A DNA stretch of 64,000 bases from Ricordea florida (lineage: Eukaryota; Cnidaria; Anthozoa; Corallimorpharia; Ricordeidae), in contig OX453276.1 of assembly GCA_949710005.1 (NCBI GenBank), positions 4,507,701 to 4,571,700 on the forward strand, given 5' to 3'. The translations under genes were made by a program, and so were the position numbers. This document shows, in pieces, positions 1,431 to 16,997 of this stretch (position 1 is its first letter; every line of letters starts with the position of its first letter). The notes beneath the pieces are model-generated. The model was not told where the DNA came from, made no database searches, and saw only the letters and a program-made list of their open reading frames with translations.

Positions 1431-1913
1431 AGTAGTGAGAAAATGGGGGTTCTAGGACAAATTAAAAAAAATGTGAAATAAAAATTATTACTAAAGATTT
1501 CATTAAAATTTTACAAAAAGATACAAAAAATGGGAAAAATTTTATCAAGGATTTATTAAGGATTTTATCAATGAAATTTATAGGTTAATAAATCGATACG
1601 GAAATTTTATCAAGGATTTATCAAGGATTTATCAAGGATTTATCAAGGATTTTATCAGAGAATTTATCAAGGATTTTATCAGAGAATTTATAGGGAAATA
1701 AAAAAAATAAAATTGTATTCAATTGCGATTTAAAAACAAAAATAATAAAAGAATAAATGGAAGAGTTACAAAAGAAAAAAGTTGTAGAATTGCAGCAAAT
1801 TGCTAAAGACCATGGTGTTGAAAAAATTTCTAGATTGCGTAAACCTGAACTCATTGAAGTGTTGAGTAATATTCCAGAAGTTATGGAAGAGATGCGAAAT
1901 CTTCAGAAACAAA
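1431..1913 (+). repeat. Polinton left terminal inverted repeat
   Basis: This arm matches 16419-16913 in reverse complement almost base for base. The arms differ by one copy of an 11-bp tandem unit (ATCAAGGATTT type; four copies here, five on the right) and about one further base. The arm includes promoter sequence and the first 52 codons of the gene at 1757, so both outermost genes share the same start region. Confidence 0.95.
1729..1737 (+). promoter_or_regulatory. TTTAAAAAC box, gene at 1757
   Basis: TTTAAAAAC lies 19 nt before the ATG and is followed by an A-rich tract almost identical to that before the gene at 2370. The right TIR gives polB the same box at about 16595-16603 on the minus strand. 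Confidence 0.6.
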
Positions 1914-2284
1914 CTCCCACACCCACTTCAGAATCTAAAACTATTAAGTATCATTATTATTGTATTCATAAAAGGCAGAAATCAAGATGTAAAGAGTGTG
2001 GAGGAACACAAATATGTGAACATAATAGAAATAAAGCTTATTGTAAAGAGTGTGGAGGATCACAAATATGTGAACATAAAAAACAAAGGACGCATTGTAA
2101 AGAGTGTGGAGGATCACAAATATGTGAACATAAAAAACAGAAGGCACGTTGTAAAGAATGTAAAGGTAAAGGAATATGTATTCATGGAAAAGAAAGAAAT
2201 TTTTGTAAGTTATGTGGAGGATCTCAAATATGTGAACATAATAGGCAGAAAGCATTTTGTAAAGAATGTTACGAAAAACATTAA
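1757..2284 (+). CDS. SAP-like domain protein with Cys/His zinc-binding repeats (Polinton left-end gene)
   Basis: This 175-residue protein has two parts. Residues 1-52, identical to the start of the PolB ORF because both lie in the TIRs, look like a SAP-type DNA-binding helix pair (KKKVVELQQIAKDHG, then SRLRKPELIEVLSN). Residues 66-173 are six tandem units of the form C-x-H followed by C-x2-C (for example ICEHKKQKARCKEC), which should bind zinc. Similar Cys/His repeat proteins are known from large DNA viruses and algae. A role in binding element DNA or the TIR is inferred, not shown. A hairpin follows the stop codon at once. The start ATG is supported by the TTTAAAAAC box 19 nt upstream. Confidence 0.8.
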   Translation: MEELQKKKVVELQQIAKDHGVEKISRLRKPELIEVLSNIPEVMEEMRNLQKQTPTPTSESKTIKYHYYCIHKRQKSRCKECGGTQICEHNRNKAYCKECGGSQICEHKKQRTHCKECGGSQICEHKKQKARCKECKGKGICIHGKERNFCKLCGGSQICEHNRQKAFCKECYEKH

Positions 2285-2314
2285 GTTATATAACACCTAC
2301 CCGCGTTACATAAC
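2285..2314 (+). terminator. Hairpin after the gene at 1757
   Basis: GTTATATAAC, 10 nt, then GTTACATAAC. The arms pair at nine of ten positions with a 10-nt loop. The same two arms with the same spacing recur at 3109-3138. A role in 3'-end formation is inferred from position. Confidence 0.5.
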
Positions 2315-2343
2315 AATAAATATAAAATTGAATTAAATTGTAA

Positions 2344-2352
2344 TTTAAAAAC
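2344..2352 (+). promoter_or_regulatory. TTTAAAAAC box, gene at 2370
   Basis: TTTAAAAAC lies 17 nt before the ATG. The surrounding bases closely match those before the gene at 1757, suggesting co-regulation. Confidence 0.55.
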
Positions 2353-2369
2353 AAAAATAATAAAATAAA

Positions 2370-3098
2370 ATGGAAAGACTAGTAAAAGATATAATTAGCA
2401 ATATTTCTAAAGAAGAAAAAAAAGAAGAAATTATTAAGTTTTCATATCTTAATGAAAAAAGACTAGGTTTTTGCGATTTTATAGAGGATATAAAAGAAGA
2501 TTTATTAAAAAATATATCAAAAAATCGAGAGTTTATTGATTATTATGTTGAAGATAAAAGTAATGATTTTTATTTTCTTGCTAAATATGGAAATAATGAA
2601 TATATTGAATTTGCAATATTCCTAGGTAATTATTATGATGATGATTATGATATTATTTATTATGGTGGTCATGTTATTGTTTTTCAAACCGGTATAAATT
2701 TTGATATTGATGGTATGTGTGTTGATAATTTTGTAAAATCAGCATTAAATTGTGCTAGTACAAGGTTAAAAGATTGTGTTGGAGGTGATTATGGTCCGTA
2801 TTATAATCATTTTGATCAATATTATGATGATATTTTTGAATATGATGGCGAGGGTGATTGTTGGCATTCACATTCAAATAAGAAATGTGATATTAACATG
2901 TTTGATGAAAAGTTTTTTGTTAAAAAAATAGAGGTTGAAATATTTTTAAATGCGGATAAGATAATACATAAAAATGAATTCTACAAAGACTTACATAATG
3001 ATTTAATGGTTGTCGCGTGGCATCCAGATAGATATATTGATTGGTGTCTTGATTTTGAAGAGTCAAGAGATTTGAAAAAAAGATGGAGTATCGATTAG
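2370..3098 (+). CDS. Unknown acidic Polinton protein, 242 aa
   Basis: This protein is Asp/Tyr/Glu-rich and has no membrane segment. A central region (about residues 125-170) contains several Cys and His residues (CVDNFVK, NCASTRLKDCVGGDYG, CWHSHSNKKC) that could bind metal. Near the C terminus is a short conserved-looking motif, AWHPDRYIDWCLDFEE, a style of motif seen in uncharacterised proteins of large DNA viruses. I do not recognise an enzyme family. It lies next to the SAP/zinc gene with the same promoter box and the same downstream hairpin, so the two are probably expressed together. It ends 48 bases before a convergent gene. Confidence 0.75.
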   Translation: MERLVKDIISNISKEEKKEEIIKFSYLNEKRLGFCDFIEDIKEDLLKNISKNREFIDYYVEDKSNDFYFLAKYGNNEYIEFAIFLGNYYDDDYDIIYYGGHVIVFQTGINFDIDGMCVDNFVKSALNCASTRLKDCVGGDYGPYYNHFDQYYDDIFEYDGEGDCWHSHSNKKCDINMFDEKFFVKKIEVEIFLNADKIIHKNEFYKDLHNDLMVVAWHPDRYIDWCLDFEESRDLKKRWSID

Positions 3099-3108
3099 AA
3101 ATAATTAT

Positions 3109-3138
3109 GTTATATAACTCAAGAAAGTGTTACATAAC
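3109..3138. terminator. Second copy of the GTTATATAAC hairpin, between convergent genes
   Basis: GTTATATAAC, 10 nt, GTTACATAAC, identical in arms and spacing to 2285-2314 but with a different loop. It sits in the 48-base gap between the plus gene ending at 3098 and the minus gene ending at 3147, so it could serve both strands. Confidence 0.55.
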
Positions 3139-3146
3139 AAAAAAAA

Positions 3147-3782
3147 TTATCTAAATCTTAAACTAAAAGTTATGGGAGAACCCTTCATATCAAGTTTTTT
3201 CCATTCATTGTCTAAGATGCTTAAATCAAAGTGATTTATGACGCTCTCATATTTTCGAACTGGAATTGTTGGATATTCTTTTGAGGGTATGTTAGCAAGA
3301 AGGTGTGATGGTGAGAGTTTCACAAGTTCTCCATATTTAGTGTTATTCATATATGATGACTTATTATCAACTATACTACACATAAGTCTTAGTGGTTCCT
3401 TAATCTGTATATTTATGGGGTATAATACAGCCGGATTTATGACTTCAGGCACCCCTAAACCAACCGCCAACCCTCTCGTAAATTTAATGTTGAAGTTCTT
3501 ATTTGAATATAGATAGTCAACAGTATCAGTCTCAATTATTGTTATCTTTGCCTTATCAGTATCATTAAGAAAGATCGATTGAATATCACGCAATGAATAT
3601 GTACCAGGTTGAATTATTATGAAGCCTCGATTCTTATCATTGAATAATATCTGTTGATCCTTGAAATTAATCAATCTTTTGGTTTGTATATTACAATCCA
3701 GGAGCTGCATCTCCCTAAGATTTTTCAGTGGAGGATCTAAATAAATCCTAGTTTCAGACTCATACATGGTAATACTCAACAT
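3147..3782 (-). CDS. Putative minor capsid (penton) protein
   Basis: The 211-residue protein has the beta-rich pattern of the single jelly-roll penton proteins of Polintons: an N-terminal strand region, a PGTYSLRDIQSIF segment (about residues 59-71), a GLAVGLGVPE turn (about 104-113), and a C-terminal block near LDNEWKKLDMKGSPITFSLR that resembles the family's closing strands. In virus-like elements this protein fills the vertices of the capsid built by the major capsid protein. Length fits the family. The ATG is chosen because a TTTAAAGAT box lies 23 nt upstream. The assignment rests on pattern recognition and needs a profile or structure comparison. Confidence 0.55.
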   Translation of the reverse strand: MLSITMYESETRIYLDPPLKNLREMQLLDCNIQTKRLINFKDQQILFNDKNRGFIIIQPGTYSLRDIQSIFLNDTDKAKITIIETDTVDYLYSNKNFNIKFTRGLAVGLGVPEVINPAVLYPINIQIKEPLRLMCSIVDNKSSYMNNTKYGELVKLSPSHLLANIPSKEYPTIPVRKYESVINHFDLSILDNEWKKLDMKGSPITFSLRFR

Positions 3783-4125
3783 TTTGTTTTGATTACATCA
3801 TATTCATCTTTAAATCGAGCTTTGCTCCCCTTTGGGGTTCCAGCTTCGCTGGTCGGGACCGGCTACGCCGTAATTTCTATAATCAAAACATTAACAAAAA
3901 TTTGCATTGACGTAATCAAAACATTAACAAAAATTTGCATTGACGTAATCACATTCCTGAGCGACGTTAGAAACCAACCTTTTTAAAGTAAACATAAAAT
4001 CTACTTTTCGATTTCAAATCCGCTTTACATTTTGCTTGTTGCTATGTCGTAAAAGTATGCAATCTATTGTTCTACACGTGGACACTAATTTACAAACAAT
4101 GATAATCACGTGAAATAGTCATGAA
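3783..4125. other. Non-coding Polinton spacer with GC hairpins and a 33-bp tandem duplication
   Basis: No gene is visible. The stretch carries the TTTAAAGAT box of the neighbouring gene (3806-3814, minus), a run of three GC-rich mini-palindromes at 3827-3870 (CCCC-TTT-GGGG, CCAGC-TTC-GCTGG and a CGGC/GCCG pair), and a perfect 33-bp duplication at 3881-3913 and 3914-3946. Confidence 0.75.
3806..3814 (-). promoter_or_regulatory. TTTAAAGAT box, penton-like gene
   Basis: Minus-strand TTTAAAGAT, 23 nt before the ATG at 3780-3782. Confidence 0.65.
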
Positions 4126-4635
4126 CTACCGAAATAGATACCACGCTAATACACTAGAGACAATTATAAATGCTAATATATTATCTTCATGTTGTGTGGT
4201 CACGTCCGACATTTCATTCAGAGTTGAGGGTTTTGGTTTCCCTCCGGGGTTTTCCTTTGGTTTCGTTTCATTCTGATACTTCCCTTCGGTCAGTAAAGGT
4301 TTTGGATTTGTCTCAGCTATATCAGCGAAGCTGGCCCCACCTGAAAGGTGGATATGAGGTAACTTTACCTTTGAAGATCCTAAGTTATGACTTATTCCAA
4401 CCTGTTTTTCTTCAGTGTTTAGGGAATTATTCACTCCAAAATTCATATCATTACTCGCTTTCATAAGTTTGTTGTTATATCCAACCACACTTTCTGTATT
4501 TATAATCATATTACTTGGCATCAACCAAACACCGGGGGCAATAGCTAAATCAAGTCGTAATTTCGTTTCCTGTACAGATAATTGATAATTTTTAATAGAA
4601 TTAGAAATATCATCTTCTAAAACACTACTTTCAAA
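4126..4635 (-). pseudogene. C-terminal, membrane-anchored part of the stop-interrupted gene
   Basis: This stretch is open in the same frame as the upstream ORF and is separated from it only by a TAA at 4636-4638. No ATG lies near its beginning; the first is at 4519-4521. The 169 codons encode a Ser/Pro/Asn-rich region and end in a clear transmembrane helix (NILAFIIVSSVLAWYLFR) at the extreme C terminus, so the product would be tail-anchored. It carries no TTTAAA box of its own. It is therefore most simply the end of the 4636-5784 gene, reached by stop readthrough or cut off by a nonsense mutation. Confidence 0.6.
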
Positions 4636-5784
4636 TTAGGATAAGAATTCTTGTTGTGTTTCGATTGCTCCACCGCCATTACCATAAATTGAGTTTCTAG
4701 TATTGGCTTGCGATCCTAATATGCAGTAAACAAAAGCTTCAGCAGATCGATTTAATCTACCAAGTCCAGCTTTAGTGAGTCCATGCCCGCTTGTTGGGAT
4801 AAACCAAGCATATTTGAAATCGCTAAATACATCATTTCGTATGAATGAGATTAAATTTCCATTTTCTTTCTTACCACCATCATCAGAAAATTTATTAAGT
4901 GAATCAGGCCATTTATTGGATTCTTTATCATAATTTCTTATAATATATTCATTTTGATAACCGCCACCTTTTCCATGATATCCTGCACCATAATCAACGA
5001 ATATATCACCCAATCCTATGTTTCTACCGCCTTTCCATCTAAAGTCAGCCAAAGGCTGGGACCCGCTCCGCGGAAAGTCAGAATTATTACTAATTCCAAA
5101 TTCATTACACAATCGATTATATGCAACTTTATTATATGGATTATTATTTATCACAAAAGGTTGTTCATCTGGTAAAGGCAGTTTCAATTCATACAATATT
5201 CGCCTTATTGTGAAATATATATGAAACTTTATAAAACTACTAATTACTTTAGGATAATTTAGACTCTCGAAAGGACTTATACCACAACCAGATGTTGCAC
5301 ACCAAACTGCAAAGTTAAGTTGTTGAGGCCAATAATTCATATCTGGTTTATTCAACCATTTTCTACTTTGTTTTCCAGATTTGAATGTTACAACTTGAGA
5401 TGTAAATATGTTTCTCATCTTTGCTGTGAATTTCTTAGTATTTGAAACATATATATCTAGAAAGGTTAGCATTTTTGTTACATCAGTTGTAAAGTCATCA
5501 AAGTTAATAGCTGGTATAGGATAAGATTGATTTGTTATGGTTAAACTCTTTGGGAAAGATGTAGAACTCGCTTCAGAATAATCCAACCCTAAATCTTTCC
5601 ATAAAAGTTTTTTCAAACTTGGTGATAGATTATCTGTCCAGGTTTTTCCAGTAGGATCATCATTAGACATGACAGTCATATCATTAACTTTCCACTTAAT
5701 ATATCCTCCATACGAATCATTCAAAAATGTAAATTTATCAAGGTTAGACTTTGGATACCTATTTTTGAAATCTTTTAGTGTCAT
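4636..5784 (-). CDS. Conserved Polinton protein of unknown function, stop-interrupted
   Basis: The ORF can be extended upstream only through non-ATG codons. The ATG at 5782-5784 is preferred because a TTTAAAAAC box lies 27 nt before it. The 382-residue product is soluble-looking, with a distinctive FAVWCATSGCGIS block followed by an aromatic helix (FIKFHIYFTIRRILYEL) and a Gly-rich region (GGRNIGLGDIF...GKGGGYQNEY). I believe this is one of the accessory structural or unknown proteins common in cnidarian Polintons, but I cannot assign a role. Translation ends at TAA 4636-4638, after which the same frame stays open to 4126 and encodes a membrane anchor. Confidence 0.75.
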   Translation of the reverse strand: MTLKDFKNRYPKSNLDKFTFLNDSYGGYIKWKVNDMTVMSNDDPTGKTWTDNLSPSLKKLLWKDLGLDYSEASSTSFPKSLTITNQSYPIPAINFDDFTTDVTKMLTFLDIYVSNTKKFTAKMRNIFTSQVVTFKSGKQSRKWLNKPDMNYWPQQLNFAVWCATSGCGISPFESLNYPKVISSFIKFHIYFTIRRILYELKLPLPDEQPFVINNNPYNKVAYNRLCNEFGISNNSDFPRSGSQPLADFRWKGGRNIGLGDIFVDYGAGYHGKGGGYQNEYIIRNYDKESNKWPDSLNKFSDDGGKKENGNLISFIRNDVFSDFKYAWFIPTSGHGLTKAGLGRLNRSAEAFVYCILGSQANTRNSIYGNGGGAIETQQEFLS

Positions 5785-5811
5785 CTTATTATTTAGATCT
5801 ATAATTGGGGT

Positions 5812-5820
5812 GTTTTTAAA
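5812..5820 (-). promoter_or_regulatory. TTTAAAAAC box, gene starting at 5784
   Basis: Minus-strand TTTAAAAAC, 27 nt before the ATG. It decides the start codon of this gene. Confidence 0.55.
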
Positions 5821-5896
5821 TGGGGAAATCAACTCAGTTCTTTTCTAATACCAGCAAAACAATTACATCCTACATCAGTTCTCTCATATGAAATTT

Positions 5897-6511
5897 TTAA
5901 TGTGCGGGAGTGGTTAGCTCTTTTAATAGATCTGCACGAACTTCTCTCCTTATCTGCGACATGTTTAAGTTTTTTTCTGTATCTCTCCTAAATTTTTGAC
6001 GGATTTCTAGTTTTAGTTTTTGAAACTTTTCTAACTCTGCTAAAATTATGGAAAATTCTTGATCAGATATAACATTATCTTTCAAAGCCTTTGAAACCAA
6101 GTCGTTAATAGTGTTTAATTTTGATTTTGCTATGGAAGCAGTCTGTTCATGTTTGCTAACTTTATTTGAAAGTCTTTTTGAGGCTGCACCGAATCCAACA
6201 GATACCCCACCACAAATTCCACCGACAACACCCAAGGGAACACCAATAATAGCTCCAAAACCAGTAAGAGAAGTTCCAAGTCCACTTGCAGATAGAATAA
6301 CTGAAATCACACCACTACAAACACTGATTTTTGTAAATATTCCTCTTGCTCTATTGTATTTTTTCCTTACATCTTCATAATGTTTAATTTCTTTCTCAAG
6401 ATTTTGTAATACTTCACTTGATTTTTGCAGTCTGAAATTAACCGACTGAAATGAGGAACTCGGGTCTGAATTAACAGGCACATTAGGATAAATTCTATTG
6501 TAGTCATCCAT
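5897..6511 (-). CDS. Polinton membrane protein with glycine-rich helical hairpin, 204 aa
   Basis: Residues about 28-55 form a charged coiled-coil-like helix. Residues about 58-110 form two long Gly/Ser/Ala-rich hydrophobic segments (KISVCSGVISVILSASGLG, then FGAIIGVPLGVVGGICGGVS) that should insert as a membrane hairpin. The C-terminal half is again helical and basic. Arrangement and position among the structural genes suggest a virion or assembly membrane protein. No enzyme motif is present. A TTTAAAGAT box lies 25 nt before the ATG. I recognise the pattern as recurrent in coral Polintons, without a known function. Confidence 0.75.
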   Translation of the reverse strand: MDDYNRIYPNVPVNSDPSSSFQSVNFRLQKSSEVLQNLEKEIKHYEDVRKKYNRARGIFTKISVCSGVISVILSASGLGTSLTGFGAIIGVPLGVVGGICGGVSVGFGAASKRLSNKVSKHEQTASIAKSKLNTINDLVSKALKDNVISDQEFSIILAELEKFQKLKLEIRQKFRRDTEKNLNMSQIRREVRADLLKELTTPAH

Positions 6512-6536
6512 ATTGTATTTTACTGATCAACATGAT

Positions 6537-6545
6537 ATCTTTAAA
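6537..6545 (-). promoter_or_regulatory. TTTAAAGAT box, gene at 6511
   Basis: Minus-strand TTTAAAGAT, 25 nt before the ATG. Confidence 0.65.
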
Positions 6546-6584
6546 TCGATACGAATAGGTTTGTTACTTTCCCTTCTTTTTAAA

Positions 6585-7799
6585 TTATCGCTTCGCGGTC
6601 TTTACCCTTTCCACAAAATATAGAACCACAGCCATTATCAACAGCCAAGCGTTCTTACCTAAAAATCCAATAACCTCACCAGCTGTTTTGAATAGAAAGC
6701 TAACTATTGCTCCAACCATCCCCGGTAATATTTCACCTAGTTTCTTACCAATAGTTTTCAACCCATTACCAACACCTTTACCCAATTTGGTTAGACCTTT
6801 AGAAAGATTAGAAACTATAACACCAATAACTACACCTACGGCACTTACAACTGCAAATACTGTAAAACCATACTTTTTGAAGATGTACTTTACCCTCTCT
6901 CGTAATGGTATATTTTTAAGTATTTCTTCTTTTTTACTCTCCAGATCAGCTATTTGTTCTTGGTTGTAAATAATACTTTTTCTTGTTAGTTCTCTGAATT
7001 TATCAACTTCGGCTTTTAATCTTTCATTACTACGTTCTAACATTGTTAAATTGGATAGTCCATTCTTATTTTTTTCAAGTTCATCTTTGTATCGATTTAA
7101 TTCACTTTTAAGTTTACCAATCTCTGTTTTTGCGTCAGTCTTCTGTTTAACAGCTGCATCTAAATAGCTTTCACTTTCAGCGATTCTGGTTTGTTGTTTT
7201 TCAATTATAGCTCTCAACTCTTTTCTATCAATTGTAACATATTGTTCTATCTCCTTTTCACCTGTATCTACAACTGCTTTTAACCCCACTAAAGCATTTT
7301 CTAAATCCTTATTTTTTTCATTAGCTTCATTTAATTGCGATGCAACATCATTATATTTTTCCAGCATGGTTTCATAATCAGCTCCTAGAGCTTTTCTCAT
7401 TGTTTGCGGTAACTTTTCAACCATCATAACCCCATCTTTATCAATCAATATATGAGGTGCGGCATTATCCCTATTACTAAATTTTGCTATTATACTACCA
7501 TCTTCACCAATTATTACATTAAATGGAGAATCAATAGGATTGTAATTAGGGAAAAACCGTTTGATAAATTGCCCTGCTTCTCTTCTTCTATCATATTTCT
7601 CACTAGGTAATTTAGGTATAGCACCCTCCTTCTCATAATTCCTACCACCAAATGAAGTTTCTTCCTCATCATCGGGGTTAATTAGACTAGTGGTTGATGA
7701 TATTGGATCCATTTCCATATTTTCTCTATCAACATCATCGTCTAGATCAGTTGGTTCAAAGTCTGGTATTTCTTTAGGTATATCTCCTCCTTCTGCCAT
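6585..7799 (-). CDS. Polinton coiled-coil membrane protein, 404 aa
   Basis: The N-terminal 60 residues are acidic. Residues about 80-130 form a small compact region (FNVIIGEDGSIIAKFSNRD). Residues about 135-295 are a long charged coiled coil. The C-terminal 110 residues contain three hydrophobic segments (GFTVFAVVSAVGVVIGVIV, PGMVGAIVSFLFKTAGEVI, WLLIMAVVLYFVE), so the protein is membrane-anchored with the coiled coil on one side. Its length and topology suggest a structural or entry-related virion component, but no homology proves this. It is the longest of the tightly packed late-type genes and has a TTTAAAGAT box 23 nt before the ATG. Confidence 0.75.
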   Translation of the reverse strand: MAEGGDIPKEIPDFEPTDLDDDVDRENMEMDPISSTTSLINPDDEEETSFGGRNYEKEGAIPKLPSEKYDRRREAGQFIKRFFPNYNPIDSPFNVIIGEDGSIIAKFSNRDNAAPHILIDKDGVMMVEKLPQTMRKALGADYETMLEKYNDVASQLNEANEKNKDLENALVGLKAVVDTGEKEIEQYVTIDRKELRAIIEKQQTRIAESESYLDAAVKQKTDAKTEIGKLKSELNRYKDELEKNKNGLSNLTMLERSNERLKAEVDKFRELTRKSIIYNQEQIADLESKKEEILKNIPLRERVKYIFKKYGFTVFAVVSAVGVVIGVIVSNLSKGLTKLGKGVGNGLKTIGKKLGEILPGMVGAIVSFLFKTAGEVIGFLGKNAWLLIMAVVLYFVERVKTAKR

Positions 7800-7822
7800 G
7801 ATTTTTTACTCATCAGTAAGAA

Positions 7823-7831
7823 ATCTTTAAA
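7823..7831 (-). promoter_or_regulatory. TTTAAAGAT box, gene at 7799
   Basis: Minus-strand TTTAAAGAT, 23 nt before the ATG. The bases between box and ATG nearly match those of the gene at 8484. Confidence 0.65.
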
Positions 7832-7849
7832 CTAATCACATACAATTAC

Positions 7850-8242
7850 CTAAAATAATTTACTAGCCATATAACCCAATGCTAACATACCACTACCTAC
7901 ATATACCATTTCACCCATCTTTTGATTGTCACTTGGTCTATAATAATCAGAGAATTTTGGTTCATGCATTTGACTATAAAATTTCAAAGCTTCATCTGTT
8001 TTCGAAATATTTTTTGAAGCCTGGTATTTATCATCCTTTTGTTGTACTTTCCAATCAATGAGTTTTTGTCTTTTTTCCTGATATTCAGCATAATCTTTTT
8101 GATATTTTTCCATTGCTTTATTGTGTCTTATTCGTTCTTCATCTGTTTTATCACCAGATAGAAATTTTGCAAGATATGATCCACCAACAAATGCAGTTGC
8201 ATTCAAAACAGCTCCTCCAACCATCATTGCTATTGCTGCCAT
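7850..8242 (-). CDS. Small Polinton membrane protein, 130 aa
   Basis: An N-terminal Ala/Gly/Val-rich hydrophobic segment (residues 2-27) and a C-terminal one (residues about 110-130) bracket a highly charged, probably helical middle (KAMEKYQKDYAEYQEKRQKL). It would span the membrane twice with the charged part on one side. The pattern, including KFSDYYRPS and the Gly-rich final helix, is one I associate with coral Polintons. Function unknown. The box 20 nt upstream is CTTAAAGAT. Confidence 0.7.
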   Translation of the reverse strand: MAAIAMMVGGAVLNATAFVGGSYLAKFLSGDKTDEERIRHNKAMEKYQKDYAEYQEKRQKLIDWKVQQKDDKYQASKNISKTDEALKFYSQMHEPKFSDYYRPSDNQKMGEMVYVGSGMLALGYMASKLF

Positions 8243-8262
8243 TTGTTAGTCAATATGTAAAA

Positions 8263-8271
8263 TCTTTAAGT
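8263..8271 (-). promoter_or_regulatory. CTTAAAGAT box, gene at 8242
   Basis: One-base variant of the TTTAAAGAT box, 20 nt before the ATG. It overlaps the last codons of the upstream gene ending at 8266. Confidence 0.6.
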
Positions 8272-8484
8272 TGGTAATATCTTTTGATCCTCTAAATATG
8301 TTTTTAGGTACATACTACCGGACAGTACAGCGACCCATTTAGCATAGTTTGTAATACTTGAGGAGGGATCGTTCATAAATGATTCTTTCATAGCCTTTTT
8401 AGCTACATATCCAACTCCAGCTGCTAATCCGATAAGGACTGCTGAATCAGTAACAGTTTTCACAAGTTTGTTTTCAGTTGACAT
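8266..8484 (-). CDS. Very small Polinton membrane protein, 72 aa
   Basis: The 72 residues hold two hydrophobic segments (about 14-27, SAVLIGLAAGVGYVA, and about 47-60, KWVAVLSGSMYL), separated by a short polar turn. Despite its size it has its own TTTAAAGAT box 23 nt before the ATG, which supports it as a real gene. Likely a small virion membrane protein; function unknown. Confidence 0.7.
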   Translation of the reverse strand: MSTENKLVKTVTDSAVLIGLAAGVGYVAKKAMKESFMNDPSSSITNYAKWVAVLSGSMYLKTYLEDQKILPT

Positions 8485-8507
8485 AATTTTTTACTAATCA
8501 GTAAGAA

Positions 8508-8516
8508 ATCTTTAAA
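8508..8516 (-). promoter_or_regulatory. TTTAAAGAT box, gene at 8484
   Basis: Minus-strand TTTAAAGAT, 23 nt before the ATG. Confidence 0.65.
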
Positions 8517-8526
8517 CTACTTTCCA

Positions 8527-9003
8527 TTATAACATTCCCATTTTTGGTGGTTGTGAGGGTTGGTTTGGAATATTTGTAGGTGGAACTTTAGTTGATACTT
8601 GTGATACCGTAGGACAAGCAGGTATTCGTTTCTCATTGGTATTTTTATAATCCTCCCTTTGTCGGTATCTCATAAACATGTCAAATGCTGTAAACCCTAT
8701 TCCTACAATGGATAAAACAGTAGTAAAAGATAGCTCCGGAATCCAAGCCTTTGCTTCACTCACTGTATTTTTATTTTCATTTTCTTCTTCTATATTTTTA
8801 GTTTCTTCTTCACGTTTCATTTGCTCCGCATCCCTTAGGGTCTCTCTGGCTAATGCTTCTTTTGCTTTTTTATTATATTCAGCTAATTTCTTACCAGCAG
8901 CGACTTTTTTAGGATCTTTTTCTCTTTTTTTGGAAGCATTACCTACTGTTTTTTCTTCTTTTGGTGGGTCTTTTGTAATTTGCTCAACAACTTCTTCTGA
9001 CAT
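8527..9003 (-). CDS. Lysine-rich Polinton protein with one membrane segment, 158 aa
   Basis: Residues 10-85 are extremely charged (KKREKDPKKVAAGKKLAEYN and similar) and could bind nucleic acid or form a coiled coil. A single hydrophobic segment follows at about 93-110 (FTTVLSIVGIGFTAFDMFM). The C-terminal 40 residues are Pro-rich and end PPKMGML. A basic domain tethered to a membrane would suit linking genome to an internal membrane; that is inference. TTTAAAGAT box 25 nt before the ATG. Confidence 0.7.
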   Translation of the reverse strand: MSEEVVEQITKDPPKEEKTVGNASKKREKDPKKVAAGKKLAEYNKKAKEALARETLRDAEQMKREEETKNIEEENENKNTVSEAKAWIPELSFTTVLSIVGIGFTAFDMFMRYRQREDYKNTNEKRIPACPTVSQVSTKVPPTNIPNQPSQPPKMGML

Positions 9004-9028
9004 TATTATTTATTTCACAAAGTAAAGA

Positions 9029-9037
9029 ATCTTTAAA
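9029..9037 (-). promoter_or_regulatory. TTTAAAGAT box, gene at 9003
   Basis: Minus-strand TTTAAAGAT, 25 nt before the ATG. Confidence 0.65.
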
Positions 9038-9047
9038 TCAGTTGTGC

Positions 9048-9620
9048 TCAGTAAACAGTATCATAACCATTAGCATCTTGTTTAGTAGCCTGCTCAGTTT
9101 TGTTGGAATCATCTATATTTTTGCATGTAACTTGTTGTATTTTATCCTCCGGGGCCCTTTGGGTCTTGATTTTAATGTGTTTAGCAACCTGAAATAGCCC
9201 GCTAGCAAGTGCTGCCAATCTTCCTGCCTTCAATGCTAATAGACCTACAATGTTTGTTAGTTCACGATTAACCAAATCATCATTCTTCAAATCAGAACAA
9301 AGTGCTTCAATATCATCTACAGGAACTAAGTAAGAAATAACTTGAGAAACTAATTGAAGAGATGAATCTACTAACCCGCCACTAATTTTCTTACCCAATA
9401 CTGCCTGGTATCGATTATAATATTTTTCAATGTCTTTTACCGATAATTTTTTTACATCACCCAGACTCATATCAACACCTAAATATTCCTTTGTGGTTCC
9501 AAGAGATGCGAGAATAGCTAGTGATTCTTGTTTTATTTCAACTTCATTATCATCATTATCTTTTACCTCAGTCTTTCCTCCGGTCTTTTCTTCTTCTATA
9601 TAATCTTCAATTTCTGTCAT
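9048..9620 (-). CDS. Conserved Polinton protein of unknown function, 190 aa
   Basis: The first 30 residues are acidic. The middle is helical, with a hydrophobic but not clearly membrane-spanning stretch (SSLQLVSQVISYLVPVDDIE, then LTNIVGLLALKAGRLAALASGLFQ) at about residues 85-145. The C terminus is polar. It lies between the packaging ATPase and the membrane-protein block and ends four bases before a box-driven neighbour begins. No domain recognised. The upstream box is TTTAGAGAT, one base off consensus, 22 nt before the ATG. Confidence 0.65.
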   Translation of the reverse strand: MTEIEDYIEEEKTGGKTEVKDNDDNEVEIKQESLAILASLGTTKEYLGVDMSLGDVKKLSVKDIEKYYNRYQAVLGKKISGGLVDSSLQLVSQVISYLVPVDDIEALCSDLKNDDLVNRELTNIVGLLALKAGRLAALASGLFQVAKHIKIKTQRAPEDKIQQVTCKNIDDSNKTEQATKQDANGYDTVY

Positions 9621-9623
9621 ATT

Positions 9624-10253
9624 TTAATTTACAACTTCAGGAATCTCTAAATAGCAATTAAATGGGTGACGTAAAGATAAACAAAGTCTAGAATATTTTT
9701 CAGTTTTTAATAATTGCACAAATTTTTTACATAATTCATAATCCAAATCACCACCATAATCTTCAAAAAACATCTTCATACCTTTTTGTGATGGGTTATG
9801 GAATGTAACAACACAAGCTACATTTTCACGGAATGGTTTTGCTATCGATGTTAATTGCTGAGTGAGAACCCAAACTGATAATCTATGATGTCTTCCGGAG
9901 AATGCTAAATCTATAAACTTGTTTGATCGTTTTTTCAAATCATTAGAAACAGCACAATCATCTAAAATTATTAATGTATTTGTTCCAGAAAATAAAGTTT
10001 GACAATCAGTTAACAATTCATTAATCTCATCAATATTACTAGCATCTGGTGATAATACAAAGAAACGTTTATCTTTATTCGCAAAATTATGATATGTTTT
10101 ATTTTTAGAATAAGTTGGACATATTAGAACAATGTAATCAAAAATTTTTCGGAATGGTCCTCGGAGCTGATCAATGAGGTACTTTGTTTTTCCACAATTT
10201 GTTGGTCCAGTTATAATACAATGGAATGGTACTTTTTCTCGTAATTCTTCCAT
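9624..10253 (-). CDS. Genome-packaging ATPase of the FtsK/HerA type
   Basis: The 209-residue protein has a Walker A loop GPTNCGKT (residues 16-23), a Walker B strand LIILDDC (about 94-100) and a downstream SGRHHRLSVWVLTQQ segment typical of the arginine-finger/sensor region. These mark the packaging ATPases shared by Polintons, virophages and related viruses, which pump DNA into a preformed capsid. An upstream extension exists only from a TTG; the ATG at 10251-10253 is preferred since it lies 25 nt after a TTAAAAAC box. The gene sits directly beside the major capsid gene, the usual arrangement for a morphogenesis module. Confidence 0.92.
   Translation of the reverse strand: MEELREKVPFHCIITGPTNCGKTKYLIDQLRGPFRKIFDYIVLICPTYSKNKTYHNFANKDKRFFVLSPDASNIDEINELLTDCQTLFSGTNTLIILDDCAVSNDLKKRSNKFIDLAFSGRHHRLSVWVLTQQLTSIAKPFRENVACVVTFHNPSQKGMKMFFEDYGGDLDYELCKKFVQLLKTEKYSRLCLSLRHPFNCYLEIPEVVN
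9643..9651 (-). promoter_or_regulatory. TTTAGAGAT box, gene at 9620
   Basis: One-base variant of the consensus box, 22 nt before the ATG, lying inside the end of the ATPase coding region. Confidence 0.55.
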
Positions 10254-10278
10254 GATTTTTTTTGTATTATAACACAAG

Positions 10279-10287
10279 GTTTTTAAG
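10279..10287 (-). promoter_or_regulatory. CTTAAAAAC box, packaging ATPase gene
   Basis: Variant of the box of the TTTAAAAAC class, 25 nt before the ATG. It falls in the 34-base gap after the capsid gene stop. Confidence 0.5.
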
Positions 10288-11526
10288 TTAGTACTTTATC
10301 GAATGTAAGTTTGAATTCATTATTTCCATCATTGCATCAGCCACAACAAACATATAACAGGTTATAGTACCAGATCCACTTTGTTTTCTTTTAATTTCTA
10401 TTTTTACACCATCTTGTGCGTTATTTAAGGCCAGACCCCCTCCATGAATACCATTATCAGGGTGAGTTCTCATATCAACCCACAGAGCAAACTTATCAGC
10501 ATAAAAATCCTTTTCCTTTACCGACCACCTCCCTTCGGTCGGTCCGAAACGTTTCTTTACTGACTCCCAGAGGTCTGATGGTATCATTCCCTTAGAGTAT
10601 AAACGATTTGGTACACCATCAACATCTATATTGATCGAGGTGATACCTGGATTGTAAAAAAACTCAGAGTTGCGTGCTCCTGCAGCGGTGGGTAATGTAA
10701 ACAAACATAATATTCCTGTCATTGATCTTCTAGGTAGATTAATATGCTGATTTATAACACTATCACCACCCAAAGATATGGTAAAAGTTTTGTGTAGAGT
10801 AACATTTTCATAAAAGAATCCTTTACCAACTTGATAAGCCGCCTGAGCCTCACGAGCTAAGTATTCGCTTGAAATACAAGAATATTCCAACTCAAGGTTT
10901 TTGATTGAATATTTTGGTGTCTTAGTTGTGTCGGAATAAATAACAATATCATTAATTGGAGCTAGTGTAATCTCAAAGATTAGTTGATGTTCTAATGCCC
11001 TTGGATAGAAAACTCCGTGATCGTTTAGAATAGGATGGTTTAGTGGAATATGATACTTGGTGTTATGTACTGATGCAAGAGCCACTTCCTTAACATCTTG
11101 AGTTTTCTTATCACCTGCATTTGTCCTGAGCTTCCTCATATTTTCAGAAGAAATACCTTGTTTTAATCTATCCGCACGATCTTCATCTGGTAAAAATAAA
11201 TCATGATAGGTTTGAAATAGATCATATCTTTGAGTATCCTGTAATGTTTCACCACCAAAAAGAACCCTAAGTCTAGATATAAGATTTCTACCTACATTAT
11301 TCACGAGTGTGTTATTAGCATGCCCATCAACATCCAAGTCAAATAGTAGAGATACACTTCCAGGTACAATCACTAAATTCTCAGAAAGTTTTGGAATATT
11401 TATATATAAGGTTTCTCCTGGATTAGCTGAAGATGGATTGAGAGTGATTCGATTAAGTGTTGATTCTGCTTTCAAACCAAATGGCTCTCTAGGAATTCTG
11501 TTTGGATTAATTTTTTCAGACGTCAT
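10288..11526 (-). CDS. Double jelly-roll major capsid protein
   Basis: The 412-residue protein matches the Polinton major capsid family. It is beta-rich throughout, has the N-terminal strand-and-arm region (residues about 35-95, including LVNNVGRNLISRLRVLFGGE), the helical insertion with a charged DLFLPDEDRADRLKQGI segment (about 110-128), and the second barrel (about 235-410). Trimers of such proteins form the hexagonal capsomers of icosahedral shells. The neighbouring ATPase and penton-like gene support a capsid function. Length is slightly short of typical but no break is visible. A perfect TTTAAAGAT box lies 25 nt before the ATG and abuts the divergent integrase gene. Confidence 0.92.
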   Translation of the reverse strand: MTSEKINPNRIPREPFGLKAESTLNRITLNPSSANPGETLYINIPKLSENLVIVPGSVSLLFDLDVDGHANNTLVNNVGRNLISRLRVLFGGETLQDTQRYDLFQTYHDLFLPDEDRADRLKQGISSENMRKLRTNAGDKKTQDVKEVALASVHNTKYHIPLNHPILNDHGVFYPRALEHQLIFEITLAPINDIVIYSDTTKTPKYSIKNLELEYSCISSEYLAREAQAAYQVGKGFFYENVTLHKTFTISLGGDSVINQHINLPRRSMTGILCLFTLPTAAGARNSEFFYNPGITSINIDVDGVPNRLYSKGMIPSDLWESVKKRFGPTEGRWSVKEKDFYADKFALWVDMRTHPDNGIHGGGLALNNAQDGVKIEIKRKQSGSGTITCYMFVVADAMMEIMNSNLHSIKY

Positions 11527-11551
11527 ATTGATTTATAAGATACTTTGGTTA

Positions 11552-11560
11552 ATCTTTAAA
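11552..11560 (-). promoter_or_regulatory. TTTAAAGAT box, major capsid gene
   Basis: Minus-strand TTTAAAGAT, 25 nt before the capsid ATG. Its last plus-strand base is the A of the integrase ATG. A related plus-strand TTTATAAGAT at 11532-11541 could serve the integrase. Confidence 0.6.
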
Positions 11561-12579
11561 TGAGTTCTACCCTATCAAAAATATCGGCGGAGCCGGGCCC
11601 GTCTTTCAGACGGATATATTATTCAACTTTGGGATATTGGAAAGGATATTCTGCAATTCCTAAATTAGCTGAAAAAGCAAAAGTAAGTGAAGATGTAGCT
11701 AAAAAATGGCTTCAGAAACAGGCGATATGGCAAATATATCTACCAGCTCCAAAGTATATTCCTAGACCGCACTGGACTGTGGATAAACCGAATCAGATTC
11801 ACCAAGCAGATTTATTATTTTTACCGCATGATAGAGTTGGAAGAAAAACATATCGATATGCATTGGTTGTAATTGATGTTGCCTCGAGATATAAAGATGC
11901 TGAACCATTAACCTCAAAAGAAACTCATGAGATATCCAAAGCTTTTGAAAAAATATATTCTAGAAAAATGAAATATCCTAAAACATTAATTGTTGATCCG
12001 GGAAGAGAATTTATGGGTGAAGTGACAAAACTTATGAATTACCATAATGTGAAAATACAGAGAAGTGAAGCTGGAAACCATAGAGCTCAAGCATTTGTTG
12101 AAAGAGCAAATAGAACATTAAGTGAACGATTATTTAGTCATCAATATGCACAAGAAATGATTAGTAATGAAAGGTCTAGAGTATGGGTGAAACGATTACC
12201 AACCATTTTGAAAACTTTGAATAGTACACCTACGAGAATAACTGGTAAAGAGCCTGATGAAGCTATAAAACTGAAAGAGGTTGATATTGAACCTAGAAAG
12301 TATAAGCGAGTTGTTGGACTTGATGAAGTGAGGCTACCAATTGAGGTTAGGGTTAGATACTTACTTGCTCCTGGTGAACTTGAGGGTGGTGAACGAAGGC
12401 GAGTTACAGATCCCATTTGGAGTATTCAGGTTTATGATATTTCTAGGAGTGTGGTTTCATCCAATCAGCCAATTTTATATTATTTAGTAGATGGGCCTAG
12501 ACGTGGTTTTGTAAGGGAAGAGTTACAGATTATACCTTATGATACTGAACTACCACCCGATTCTGTTTTGAAGAGATAA
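11560..12579 (+). CDS. Retroviral-type (RVE) integrase of the Polinton
   Basis: The 339-residue protein has a short N-terminal helix region, a core with the catalytic triad D84 (HQADLLFLP), D146 (LIVDPGREF) and E181 (AFVERANRTL), giving D,D(34-35),E spacing, and a C-terminal SH3/chromo-like region ending about residue 330. It cuts and joins element ends to host DNA, consistent with the intact TIRs and duplication. It is transcribed divergently from the capsid gene across a 33-base gap, leaving almost no room for a normal promoter. Its 3' end overlaps the convergent polymerase gene by 43 bases. All catalytic residues appear intact. Confidence 0.93.
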   Translation: MSSTLSKISAEPGPSFRRIYYSTLGYWKGYSAIPKLAEKAKVSEDVAKKWLQKQAIWQIYLPAPKYIPRPHWTVDKPNQIHQADLLFLPHDRVGRKTYRYALVVIDVASRYKDAEPLTSKETHEISKAFEKIYSRKMKYPKTLIVDPGREFMGEVTKLMNYHNVKIQRSEAGNHRAQAFVERANRTLSERLFSHQYAQEMISNERSRVWVKRLPTILKTLNSTPTRITGKEPDEAIKLKEVDIEPRKYKRVVGLDEVRLPIEVRVRYLLAPGELEGGERRRVTDPIWSIQVYDISRSVVSSNQPILYYLVDGPRRGFVREELQIIPYDTELPPDSVLKR

Positions 12580-14054
12580 TGACCGATAGCATAAGTACGT
12601 ATTCCATCTTCACAAATAATTCTCTTATCATCAGCAGCAGATAGTGCAACTTTATTAACAGTTTCAGTATAAACATCGTGTCTGTGACTTCTAATTACAT
12701 TCATCTGTCTCATCTGCTGTTTTCCAGTGATCAATAGACAATCCTTGTAATTATTGTGACTTATTGTCTTTTTTACAACTGATGCTTTTACTCCTTTATC
12801 CTTTTTTATCTCTTCACCGCCATCCATCAATATAGAGTATAGCTTTGGTCTTAGACCAACAAATTCAATTATCTGCTTACCCCCGCATTCATCTTTAAAC
12901 TTACCGATTAATTTTTTGTTTACACCAGTCTCAATACCAGATGGGTGGTTTTTAGGATAATTACTGGTGTCAAACATTTCTCTAACATCTGGACTGATAT
13001 CCTTATAGAAATCCTCTGTCTCTATCTCATATACAAGACTGTCTGTATCTGTGAACAACAATTTAGCCTTTTCTCCATATTTAGGTTTGATATAATTATA
13101 GTGAAAATCATACATTACTGTTTTGCTTAAATCTAGAATGCACATTCCTAAGTAAACAGGTTTATTGAATTTTATCTTTTTTTTCTTCATATGAATAGCT
13201 GCTAAATTTTTAGAAAAGATAGTACGATGTTGATAATTAGGTTGTTTTATTAATTTTTTAGCATCTTTTTGATTTGTAACTAATCTAATGTCTACCCTAT
13301 TTCTAATGTTTTCCATGGTTTTACCAAAGACAGAGTTATTCATTAACTTGAAGAAATCTTTTTCAAAGTCGTTATTTGCTTTTGATCTTAGATTAGTATT
13401 CAAGTCAATGTAAGGTTTTAACCAAGCTGTCTCTTCAAATGTAATTCCCCTATGAATCTTTGTTATTTTTAATCCTAGACTTTCATAAAGTTTCAAGGTC
13501 TCGCGGTGAACTACATACTTTTCCTTGTTGTTGAGGTTTGGAATCAGTTTCTCAACCCCATTAACCTTAATTCTCTCTGGAGCTAAAGGATAATCATTAT
13601 GTAAATCATGTAGGTGATGAGGATATTCTAAATCAACCTCTAATATACAGGGGATATTTTTCCAGTTTTTAATCTCTTCTTGATCAGTAATCCATCTAAA
13701 ACCGTGAGTAGGTAGTGGTTTACTCATTGCTTCGCCATATAAGTTATTTCTGTCAAGATATACAATATACTTTGTTGGTTGGTTTGGATTATATTCTTTC
13801 ATGTATGGATTATTAGCTTTTGCATATCTATTAGAAATCTGGGATACACCTCCTCTAATTCCTCTCTCAAACATAAGTAGCATGTTGATATCAGTTAACA
13901 ACTCCAAATTCACTTTTGTTATCTTTAATGCTGCATCCCAAGCTAGTCCAGGTGCTGTATAATAGTGAGCAGGATCTAAACCATAATTCTTTTGACAAAC
14001 ATCTCTAAAATTCTCAAATACATCCATTAAAAATAGTACATCATTGTACATCAT
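12537..14054 (-). pseudogene. polB: Protein-primed DNA polymerase B, C-terminal polymerase part
   Basis: This 505-codon frame carries the catalytic palm: motif A as YLDRNNLYG (about residues 99-107), motif B as KLMNNSVFGKTMEN (236-249) and motif C as FTDTDSL (334-340), followed by thumb and C-terminal regions. The conserved YGLDPAHYYTAPGLAWD block is at 24-40. It overlaps the upstream 844-codon frame by 14 bases but lies in a different frame. The junction falls inside a region that is continuous in intact family members, and the local sequence has the direct repeat GATGTAC-AAT-GATGTAC, so a small deletion is the likeliest cause. Catalytic residues are otherwise intact. Confidence 0.88.
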
Positions 14055-16575
14055 CCCTCATTGTTTTCATATTAAAAGTTTTCCATACCTTTTTAGCATG
14101 TTGATAGTCATCTTCTGTTATATGTTCATCGTTTAGTTTTGAGTAAAATGCATCCTTTGGTGGAAGTTGAGTTTCATTTAGTTTATCAAAGCTATCAAAC
14201 CAATCATATGGAAATACGCCTTTTCTCAACATCAAATACATCTTATCCATAAATTTCTTTTTCGTTTCAGTTAATTTCTCATCTTTTGGAGAAAGACATC
14301 TACTTCCAGATAACACACCTCTACAGACATCACACTTTCCACATTTTGTAAGATTATCAACTAATTTATTAAGACTTGTTGCCATAAATTTAAATGAATC
14401 TATGAATCTAATATCTAACTTATCTTCTCTTTCAACACCTTTTTTATCTATATATTTTTCAAGTACAATCTGTTTTGTAAAAGAAATATATTTTTCCTCG
14501 TTATTAGGTATGCAATCTACTTTACCTTTTGTTATACCAATATTCTTAATAAAAAGATGTGCGTCATATCCTGATAAATTGTGAAAGATAATTGGTATGA
14601 ATTTTTTAATCTTAAAATTTAAATTGCACTTACTATGAGCTGCTCCTCTATACTTTCCTGTATAGTGACAGTGGTCTTTTACCTTATCTTTTTCTAATAA
14701 TTCACCCTCACATATATGGCAATGAGTAGCATTTTTATAGTTGAATTTTTCCCTTTGTGTCATCCAATTCAATTTCTTGTTAGGTTTTATTTTTTCATAA
14801 ATTTCTCTAATATCCTTTTCTAATTCAACCATAAATCTCTGTCCTACATCTTCATCTGGGGATTTAGCGGTGTATAGTCTAATAGCAGTTTCATAATTTT
14901 CATCAAAAAACTTTATTATATAACAGTATCCAGATGGTTTGTGCTTTTGATATTTTTTAGTAAAACTTTTACTTTCATCTGGTGAGCAGGTGTCTATTTT
15001 CTCTGGATAACACTCAAAGTCGCCATATACAACAAAGGGTACTCGCATTTTTTTGTAATAATTAATGAATTTAATATATTCAGGATTTCCATCTTTAGTC
15101 ATCGGCATTTCACTCCTAACAGCTTCGTTTTCTCTACAATATACCATGTGATTTTCTAATGTTTCCTCTTTATGAGTGTGATAAAGACACCTATGACATG
15201 TGTAAATCTTACATTTATGTTTAGTAACTTGTGAAACTACCAATCTGTTAAAATTAGTTATCAAACAGTAGTGATTTGTTTCATCGTTTGATATTAGAAG
15301 TAAGTTTATCAAATAGCCACTTTGTTTATCACTTATTCTTAGAGGGTATACTTCACATTTATCATCATCATTATTATATCCGTAGACATTAATCGTGTAG
15401 TAGGGGTTTTGCTTTTCAAACTTATCAATATCTTTCCATTCAGCAGGAAAATTTATTCCTTCCCAGTTCAACTTCTTTTCATTCTCTATCAGTTCTTTAT
15501 TTACCCTCTCCCGGTGAACATCTCTGGGATACGCACCTTCTGTTACTGTATGTTTAAAACACTTATTATCATTTTCATTCTTAGGGTTAACAATTGACTT
15601 TTTGTTTGCTAAAATTTTTGGTAATGGAATATAAGAACTTCCTAAAAGTGGTTCAAATGGGTCAATTTTTATATCAAAGTATTCCACATGATCGAATACC
15701 CAACCTGAACCATTTTCTGTAAACCTCTTAAACACCTCAAGTTGGTTGTTAGTCATCACATCGAATAAGTTAGATAAATCAGTTGACTCTGTTATCGTTT
15801 CTGGTTGTTTAGTATGAAATGGGGGTGATGCTTCATCAAAATTTAGTGTATTAGGATTCTCTTTTATAAATTTGCAGACAAGAATAAATTTCACCTTTAG
15901 CGGTTTCTTTTGCTGATTAATTAGATCTGTAACTTTTGGTTTGATTTTTTTGATAAATGTCTTTTCATCATATCCTTTCTTACCATATATCCTGTATGTT
16001 TTCAAATAACCATCAAACGCTGTTTCTTGTTCTATTGGGTTGAAATCTTCTTCTTTTTCATATTCAGTGGTGGGTTTTTTAAACGTTCTTTTAAATCTTT
16101 CCTTCAGACTTTCTTTCGGAGCAAAGCGTTTTCTTATTTGACTAACCTTTTCATTCGAATTTTCTTTTTGATTTAAACGTTTAAATATTTTGTTAAACTT
16201 TTCCTTCATACTTTCTATTCGTTTGTCTACAATCTTTTTAGGAGTTTCTGGTACATAAGATAGTATCCAATCTGCGAACTTGTTAATATCTTTCATTATT
16301 GGTTTGACAACTTTACTTTCCAAATTTTTAATTGGTATGGTTTGGGGTTTTGGTTTTGGGGTTTTTGGTTTTAGAGTTCGAACATTAATCTTAGGTATTG
16401 GCTCGTCAAGAATGATTCTTTGTTTCTGAAGATTTCGCATCTCTTCCATAACTTCTGGAATATTACTCAACACTTCAATGAGTTCAGGTTTACGCAATCT
16501 AGAAATTTTTTCAACACCATGGTCTTTAGCAATTTGCTGCAATTCTACAACTTTTTTCTTTTGTAACTCTTCCAT
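14041..16575 (-). pseudogene. polB: Protein-primed DNA polymerase B, N-terminal exonuclease part
   Basis: The 844-codon frame starts in the right TIR. Residues 1-52 are the SAP-like module shared with the gene at 1757. A basic, low-complexity linker follows to about 200. A C2H2-like zinc finger is at about 454-480 (CKIYTCHRCLYH...HMVYC). Exonuclease motif I is VYGDFECYPE (516-525) and motif II is HNLSGYDAHLF (665-675). A Cys/His HNH-like insertion lies at 619-652 (CHICEGEL...DHCHYTGKYRG). The frame ends at 14041 just as the polymerase palm would begin; the rest continues in the 12537-14054 frame. As a split gene it probably makes no active polymerase unless frameshifting occurs. Confidence 0.88.
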
Positions 16576-16913: not shown

Positions 16914-16918
16914 ATGAC
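16913..16918. repeat. Polinton target-site duplication, right copy
   Basis: TATGAC, matching 1425-1430. Confidence 0.85.
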
Positions 16919-16997
16919 TAAAACTTCTATTTTATTCCTCATTTGAGAGGTATGTCATTGGAATACATCCACAATTTACGTCTTGCAAAAGTAGTTT

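What the first reader, a model, noticed from the sequence alone, without database searches (positions are those of the whole stretch)
1729..11560. A shared promoter box drives almost every Polinton gene
On the coding strand a TTTAAAGAT box (or close variant) precedes the ATG of eight minus-strand genes, at 20-25 nt: the genes starting at 3782, 6511, 7799, 8242, 8484, 9003, 9620 and 11526. A second class, TTTAAAAAC (CTTAAAAAC at the ATPase), precedes the genes at 1757, 2370, 5784, 10253 and, through the TIR, polB, at 17-27 nt. Structural genes mostly use the first class, and the terminal DNA-binding and polymerase genes the second. This looks like virus-style early and late promoters with very short 5' leaders, in an element with no RNA polymerase of its own.
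Basis: seen in the sequence. Interest (0 to 1): 0.9.

Follow-up and report, generated by a model that had tools for sequence, protein, structure and literature searches.

The report
Two-part promoters of an animal Polinton
Almost every gene of this virus-like jumping element begins with the same tiny switch, a TATA-like box plus a start mark a fixed 25 letters further on, which suggests that the element carries its own compact, virus-style gene-expression code with hardly any leader on its messages.

Summary
The element (1431-16913) has 14 genes; 13 carry a TTAAAR or TATAAG hexamer 25-35 nt before the ATG. Copies in the same genome keep it: 275 of 292 gene starts, against 927 of 9221 ATGs, and 20 of 20 further capsid-gene starts that I picked. 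DNA upstream of the box is often unrelated between copies (404-aa gene: identity 0.44, hexamer 0.91, downstream 0.95).

I read this as a two-part core promoter whose start site leaves leaders of about 0-15 nt. Capsid and integrase genes share a superimposed divergent promoter.

Corrections: the 190-aa gene's "box" is ATPase coding sequence; integrase does have a box; the early/late split fails, because the penton and terminal genes switch class between copies. Limits: one genome, capsid proteins at least 80% identical in the loci compared, no mapped start site. The transcribing polymerase is unknown; host Pol II is likeliest.

The parts
1431..16913 (.). Polinton element, TIRs starting AGTAGTGAG, flanked by (T)ATGAC on both sides
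   Evidence: TIR arms; end sequences
1729..1737 (+). box of 175-aa gene, TTTAAAAAC; predicted start 1755
2344..2352 (+). box of 242-aa gene, TTTAAAAAC; predicted start 2370 = the ATG itself
   Evidence: similar to the TIR promoter, D5
3806..3814 (-). box of 211-aa gene, TTTAAAGAT; predicted start 3788
3817..3870 (-). row of four GC-rich hairpins with 3-nt loops just upstream of the 211-aa box
5812..5820 (-). box of 382-aa (presumed penton) gene, TTTAAAAAC; predicted start 5794
6537..6545 (-). box of 204-aa gene, TTTAAAGAT; predicted start 6519
   Evidence: 15 of 15 rows
7823..7831 (-). box of 404-aa gene, TTTAAAGAT; predicted start 7805
   Evidence: 16 of 16 rows
8262..8270 (-). box of 130-aa gene, CTTAAAGAT, overlapping the stop codon of the 72-aa gene; predicted start 8244
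   Evidence: only 6 of 16 rows
8508..8516 (-). box of 72-aa gene, TTTAAAGAT; predicted start 8490
9029..9037 (-). box of 158-aa gene, TTTAAAGAT; predicted start 9011
   Evidence: 46 of 48 rows
9643..9651 (-). TTTAGAGAT: NOT a box, codons of the ATPase C terminus; the 190-aa gene's box seen in other copies is missing in this one
10279..10287 (-). box of ATPase gene, CTTAAAAAC; predicted start 10261
11552..11560 (-). box of major capsid gene, TTTAAAGAT; predicted start 11534
   Evidence: 43 of 45 rows
11533..11541 (+). box of integrase gene, TTATAAGAT, facing and superimposed on the capsid promoter; predicted start 11559
16595..16603 (-). box of polB gene, TTTAAAAAC, inside the TIR; predicted start 16577
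4636..4638 (-). in-frame TAA between the 382-aa ORF and the 132-aa ORF

Best explanation
Each gene of this Polinton has its own minimal core promoter in two parts: a TATA-like box (roughly YRATTTAAARA, also TCTAAAG and TATAAG) and an A-rich start mark (TAA, AAA or CAA) whose constant A lies exactly 25 nt after the first base of the hexamer. Shown: both parts, their fixed spacing, their presence across copies, and for several genes the turnover of DNA upstream of the box. Inferred: transcription starts at that A or its neighbour; mRNAs are single-gene with leaders of about 0-15 nt, nearly leaderless for integrase, polB and the 175-, 242- and 130-aa genes. Inferred: the box is bound by TBP or a TBP-like factor and read by host RNA polymerase II, the default for an integrated element without a polymerase gene. 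At the capsid-integrase pair the two promoters are superimposed head to head, each predicted start falling on the first base of the other's hexamer, so the two genes probably cannot fire at once.
For: Position-specific enrichment in the window. Box pattern at 275 of 292 gene starts read in copies (130-aa rows left out; the window's own element, as L002 and L047, is included), against 927 of 9221 ATGs with the same pattern. By mechanical ORF calling, box before 231 of 265 ORFs homologous to window proteins, 4 of 137 overlapping shadow ORFs and 3 of 33 other ORFs. A at +25 in 35 of 36 representatives and at +26 in 32 of 36; the best count in spacing-shuffled sets averages 26.3 and 0 of 5000 reach 35. 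Window alone: A at +25 in 13 of 13 and at +26 in 12 of 13, 10 of 20000 shuffles; without duplicated promoters 10 of 10 and 10 of 10, 30 of 20000. Hexamers not before a gene have AA at +25/+26 in 16 of 87 cases in the element and 28 of 234 outside it. In 20 further MCP starts that I picked from the unread hits: box 20 of 20, A at +25 20 of 20. Upstream DNA differs while the box stays in the 404-, 72- and 382-aa genes (upstream identity 0.40-0.44). Boxes stand on both strands and also before MCP, polB and the 211-aa gene, which do not closely follow a gene on their strand.
Against: No RNA data: no start site is measured. The stretch before ATGs is A-rich in general (A at -3 in 33 of 36). All copies come from one genome and share ancestry: in the loci brought in by capsid searches (L002-L046) the capsid protein is 80-100% identical to the window's, and the 404-aa protein of L047-L061 is 75-100%. 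For ATPase and the 190-aa gene the DNA upstream of the box is conserved too (0.73 and 0.79), so there the box does not stand out. Across all hexamers of the 60 loci and further stretches held, 446 of 1515 have AA at +25/+26 (L002-L061 only), a figure that includes the gene promoters. Box picking is by pattern, and one of the 36 rows (L053, 72-aa) is visibly mis-anchored. The 130-aa gene shows a box in only 6 of 16 rows, ATPase in 33 of 45. The start mark is not the usual metazoan initiator, and the first T of TTTAAAR lies about 26 nt before it, shorter than the usual 28-33 (recalled). No relative from another species could be read.
Confidence: 0.7

Rival explanations
1. Same two-part promoter, but read by a non-host RNA polymerase: a co-infecting large DNA virus supplies it, as for virophages, or a factor unknown so far in the element does. 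Starts at the AAA could then give slipped 5' oligo(A) leaders as in poxviruses (slippage recalled).
For: Box plus A-rich start mark resembles the core plus TAAA initiator of vaccinia intermediate promoters (one section of PMC5294985 read); virophage promoters copy those of their giant virus (passages of PMC8547959, and PMC10945749); predicted leaders of 0-2 nt for five genes; canonical AATAAA lies within 50 nt after the stop in only 2 of 14 genes.
Against: No helper is known; no window box contains CroV's TCTA, though some copies have TCTAAAG; the capsid gene is present in at least 101 scored places of an animal nuclear genome; no RNA polymerase domain in the 16 ORF proteins scanned.
Confidence: 0.15
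2. One reading: two promoter classes, TTTAAAGAT for late structural genes and TTTAAAAAC for early genes.
For: Some genes keep AAAG or AAAA across copies.
Against: The 382-aa gene mixes both (10 and 5 of 15); the terminal gene changes class between copies; ATPase and the 190-aa gene share the supposed early class.
Confidence: 0.1
3. The boxes are RNA signals (translation leader, reinitiation between cistrons, or a trans-splice acceptor), not promoters.
For: They sit 25-42 nt before ATGs (42 being the limit of the search), and some touch the previous stop codon.
Against: Genes with no close upstream neighbour on their strand (MCP, polB, 211-aa) have them; integrase and capsid boxes lie over each other's start; the 36 stretches printed show no constant AG or pyrimidine tract.
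Confidence: 0.06
4. Chance in AT-rich DNA plus shared ancestry of copies.
For: The element is 64-71% AT in 2-kb bins from 2001 to 18000; several promoters are duplicates; copies are close relatives.
Against: 14 of 586 ATGs in the same DNA; AA mark at 12 of 13 gene hexamers against 16 of 87 others in the element; flanking DNA changes while the box stays for several genes.
Confidence: 0.03

Closest known systems
Vaccinia virus intermediate promoters (core plus TAAA initiator)
   Same: Two A/T-rich parts, a core and a TAAA-like initiator region (PMC5294985, section '3. Poxviridae Family' read).
   Different: Poxviruses bring their own RNA polymerase; none seen here. Start sites here are predicted only, and only 5 of 13 window genes read TAAA at the mark.
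Mavirus/EMALE promoter motifs
   Same: One motif upstream of genes of a small integrating element, found by comparing upstream regions (passages of PMC8547959).
   Different: For the type-4 EMALEs the motif is TCTA in AT-rich DNA, matching the giant virus CroV; host is a protist.
KSHV TATT late promoters
   Same: Altered TATA box on late genes, e.g. TATTTAAAG about 29-32 nt before the start (passages of PMC6541308).
   Different: None of the 13 window boxes reads TATTWAA, though some copies of the 204-aa gene read TATTTAAAG; beta- and gammaherpesviruses encode six factors for it (abstract line), none recognised here.
RNA polymerase II TATA promoters
   Same: A/T-rich box at roughly the TATA distance from a fixed position.
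   Different: Second base is T or C rather than A except at integrase; the start mark is AA, not the usual initiator (recalled).

Membership tests
Polinton/Maverick | Long terminal inverted repeats and short target duplication | tested here: met
   TIRs inward from 1431 and 16913, (T)ATGAC on both sides
Polinton/Maverick | rve integrase, A32-type ATPase, double-jelly-roll capsid, polB | tested here: inconclusive
Pol II TATA promoter | TATAWAWR about 30 nt before the start | tested here: inconclusive
   TTAAAR in 12 of 13 window genes, TATAAG in one; start not measured
Poxvirus intermediate promoter | Two parts, core and initiator | tested here: met
   A at +25 in 35 of 36; that it is an initiator is inferred
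Poxvirus intermediate promoter | TAAA initiator | tested here: inconclusive
   TAAA in 5 of 13 window genes; the rest AAAC, AAAT, AAAA, CAAA or AATG
Poxvirus intermediate promoter | Virus-encoded RNA polymerase | tested here: not met
   none among 16 ORF proteins scanned against Pfam
Virophage-type promoter shared with a helper virus | Same motif in a helper virus | not testable with these tools
   No helper known
KSHV TATT late promoter | TATTWAA box | tested here: not met
   0 of 13 window boxes
Core promoter | Mapped transcription start downstream of the box | not testable with these tools
   No RNA data

The most novel reading that the evidence does not exclude
Animal Polintons run a self-contained viral transcription programme: rigid two-part promoters that make leaderless or oligo(A)-headed mRNAs, read by machinery other than ordinary host Pol II, with a superimposed capsid/integrase promoter acting as an exclusive switch between making particles and integrating.
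Probability: 0.15. Interest if true: 0.92.

Novelty: new variant of a known kind. Interest (0 to 1): 0.72.

Why it matters
How, and whether, animal Polintons express a viral gene set is poorly known (recalled). A promoter grammar that predicts a start base for nearly every gene makes this directly testable in 5'-end data, helps to call gene starts and accessory genes (it exposed one false gene and one lost promoter here), and offers a concrete switch between integrase and capsid. Seven paper searches showed, in their listings, no title or abstract describing promoter motifs in animal Polintons (open-licence PMC papers only). A term search inside one Polinton-like-virus paper found no mention of promoters (PMC12220804).

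Tried and rejected
Relatives outside this genome: IMG/VR scans with the MCP, an MCP alignment, an ATPase alignment, a polB piece and integrase found none; the GTDB genome collection gave none with the MCP alignment and one bacterial ATPase match, L001, not used. So conservation is shown within one genome only.

Two-class early/late: tested and not upheld. Trans-splicing: no constant AG or pyrimidine tract in the 36 printed stretches. Canonical poly(A) signals as partners of the boxes: 2 of 14 genes only. Pfam and PHROGs gave no convincing name for the unknown structural genes; no PDB match for the 382-aa protein; Rfam found one tRNA in the window. Papers seen as passages that gave nothing further: PMC12220804, PMC11464507, PMC5294985.

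Dropped rows: the 16 rows of the 130-aa gene were left out of the start-mark test because its starts are uncertain in copies. One mis-anchored row was kept among the 36. The 20 loci were picked by hand out of the 85 hits that had no locus. My notebook calls L032-L046 a 64% family; that was identity to the query P0115, and their capsid is 80-81% identical to the window's. For this I lowered the main confidence from 0.72 to 0.70.
Full report
What is there. The element runs from 1431 to 16913, with TIRs beginning AGTAGTGAG and (T)ATGAC on both outer sides. It lies in a 538-Mb genome of 48 contigs, at C5:4507701-4571700, where 101 scored matches to its capsid protein were listed, a lower bound. 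Pfam names the integrase (rve) and the ATPase (Pox_A32); the capsid match is just below cut-off. This copy is damaged: one TAA splits the 382-aa gene, and polB lies in two frames.

The boxes. YTTAAARA stands 15-30 nt before 12 of the 15 starts I listed first, against 14 of 586 ATGs on both strands. Two of the three exceptions vanish on inspection: the 132-aa ORF continues the frame of the 382-aa gene, and integrase has TTATAAGAT, the only such site in the element, 18 nt before its ATG. So 13 of 14 genes have a box.

Copies. I read gene starts in 60 loci (L002-L061, including the window's own element twice) found with the MCP, a divergent MCP and the 404-aa protein. Capsid proteins are 95-100% (L002-L031) and 80-81% (L032-L046) identical to the window's; the 404-aa proteins of L047-L061 are 75-100%. 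With the pattern T[TC]TAAAR or CTTAAAR 12-40 nt upstream, counts were: 158-aa 46 of 48, 190-aa 40 of 41, 204-aa 15 of 15, 211-aa 2 of 2, 404-aa 16 of 16, 72-aa 16 of 17, MCP 43 of 45, 382-aa 15 of 15, ATPase 33 of 45, integrase 15 of 43, 130-aa 6 of 16; all ATGs of the loci, gene starts included, 427 of 9221. The other 28 integrase rows have TATAAG at the same place. DNA upstream of the box is often replaced: mean identity upstream, in the hexamer and downstream is 0.44, 0.91, 0.95 for the 404-aa gene, 0.44, 0.94, 0.64 for the 72-aa gene and 0.40, 0.84, 0.45 for the 382-aa gene. For ATPase (0.73 upstream) and the 190-aa gene (0.79) the upstream part is conserved as well. A mechanical ORF search gave boxes before 231 of 265 homologous ORFs, 3 of 33 other ORFs and 4 of 137 shadow ORFs; one of the three is an 89-aa accessory ORF in L058 with a full box.

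The second part. Anchoring 36 distinct promoters on the hexamer shows A at +25 in 35 and at +26 in 32. Shuffling the box-to-ATG distances among them gives a best count of 26.3 on average and never 35 in 5000 trials. In the window alone A stands at +25 in 13 of 13 genes and at +26 in 12 of 13, reached by 10 of 20000 shuffles; without duplicated promoters, 10 of 10 at both, 30 of 20000. Control hexamers not before a gene have AA there in 16 of 87 cases in the element and 28 of 234 in the rest of the window. Hexamers were sought 18-42 nt before the ATG; those found lie 25-42 nt away. As a later check I fetched 20 more MCP starts picked from unread hits: box 20 of 20, A at +25 20 of 20. How far these 20 differ in protein was not measured.

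The capsid-integrase pair. In the window the capsid hexamer starts at 11559 and its predicted start is 11534; the integrase hexamer starts at 11534 and its predicted start is 11559. All 43 integrase rows have a facing box at one distance, 26 nt from hexamer to ATG. Among the 20 further loci my strict pattern found the facing box in 9. Looking by position, 17 have an integrase ATG over the capsid box, and 16 of these have a TTAARG, TATAAG or TTTAAG hexamer 26-27 nt before it, L071 being the exception; three (L076, L083, L086) lack the ATG. Mutual exclusion is inference.

What it does. Reading: gene-by-gene core promoters, start at the AA mark, leaders of about 0-15 nt (0-10 in the window). Which polymerase reads them is open. 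Host Pol II with TBP is the default. The parallel to vaccinia intermediate promoters (core plus TAAA initiator) and to virophage promoters that copy a helper's (passages) leaves room for a viral polymerase. Early/late classes as proposed do not hold.

Limits. One genome, no RNA data, no other species, fairly close copies; box-picking by pattern; shared ancestry among copies.

Noticed in passing
window 3817-3870; L047-L061 stretches outside tblastn matches: GC-rich hairpins of 4 or more bp with 3-nt loops are packed outside the matched genes of L047-L061: 45 in 8444 nt, against 62 in 54529 matched nt and 2.6 expected in shuffled DNA. Against a special role: the window's element as a whole holds 12 in about 15.4 kb and the whole 64-kb window 51, so only the intergenic clusters stand out. 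They may be mobile GC clusters or mRNA 3'-end signals like the giant-virus hairpin rule (search listing only).
   Followed up: partly
window 11526-11560: Capsid and integrase promoters are superimposed head to head, each predicted start on the first base of the other's hexamer.
   Followed up: yes
window 2275-2323 and 3099-3147: Palindrome pair GTTATATAAC...GTTACATAAC after the 175-aa stop and between the convergent 242- and 211-aa stops; possible two-way terminator.
   Followed up: no
window 2319-3925, compared with L062: In copy L062 the DNA matching the window breaks off at 2319 and resumes at 3925, so the 242- and 211-aa genes are missing there: accessory genes that come with their own boxes.
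   Followed up: partly
window 678-837 and 17003-17158: Inverted repeats of 90 and 55 nt (93% and 91%) outside the Polinton ends, as if it had inserted into an older inverted-repeat element.
   Followed up: no
window 1757-1913 and 16419-16575: The TIR contains the promoter and about the first 52 codons of both polB and the 175-aa Cys-repeat protein, so both genes start with the same Rho_N domain.
   Followed up: no
window 14041-14054: polB lies in two overlapping frames in this copy; described only.
   Followed up: no
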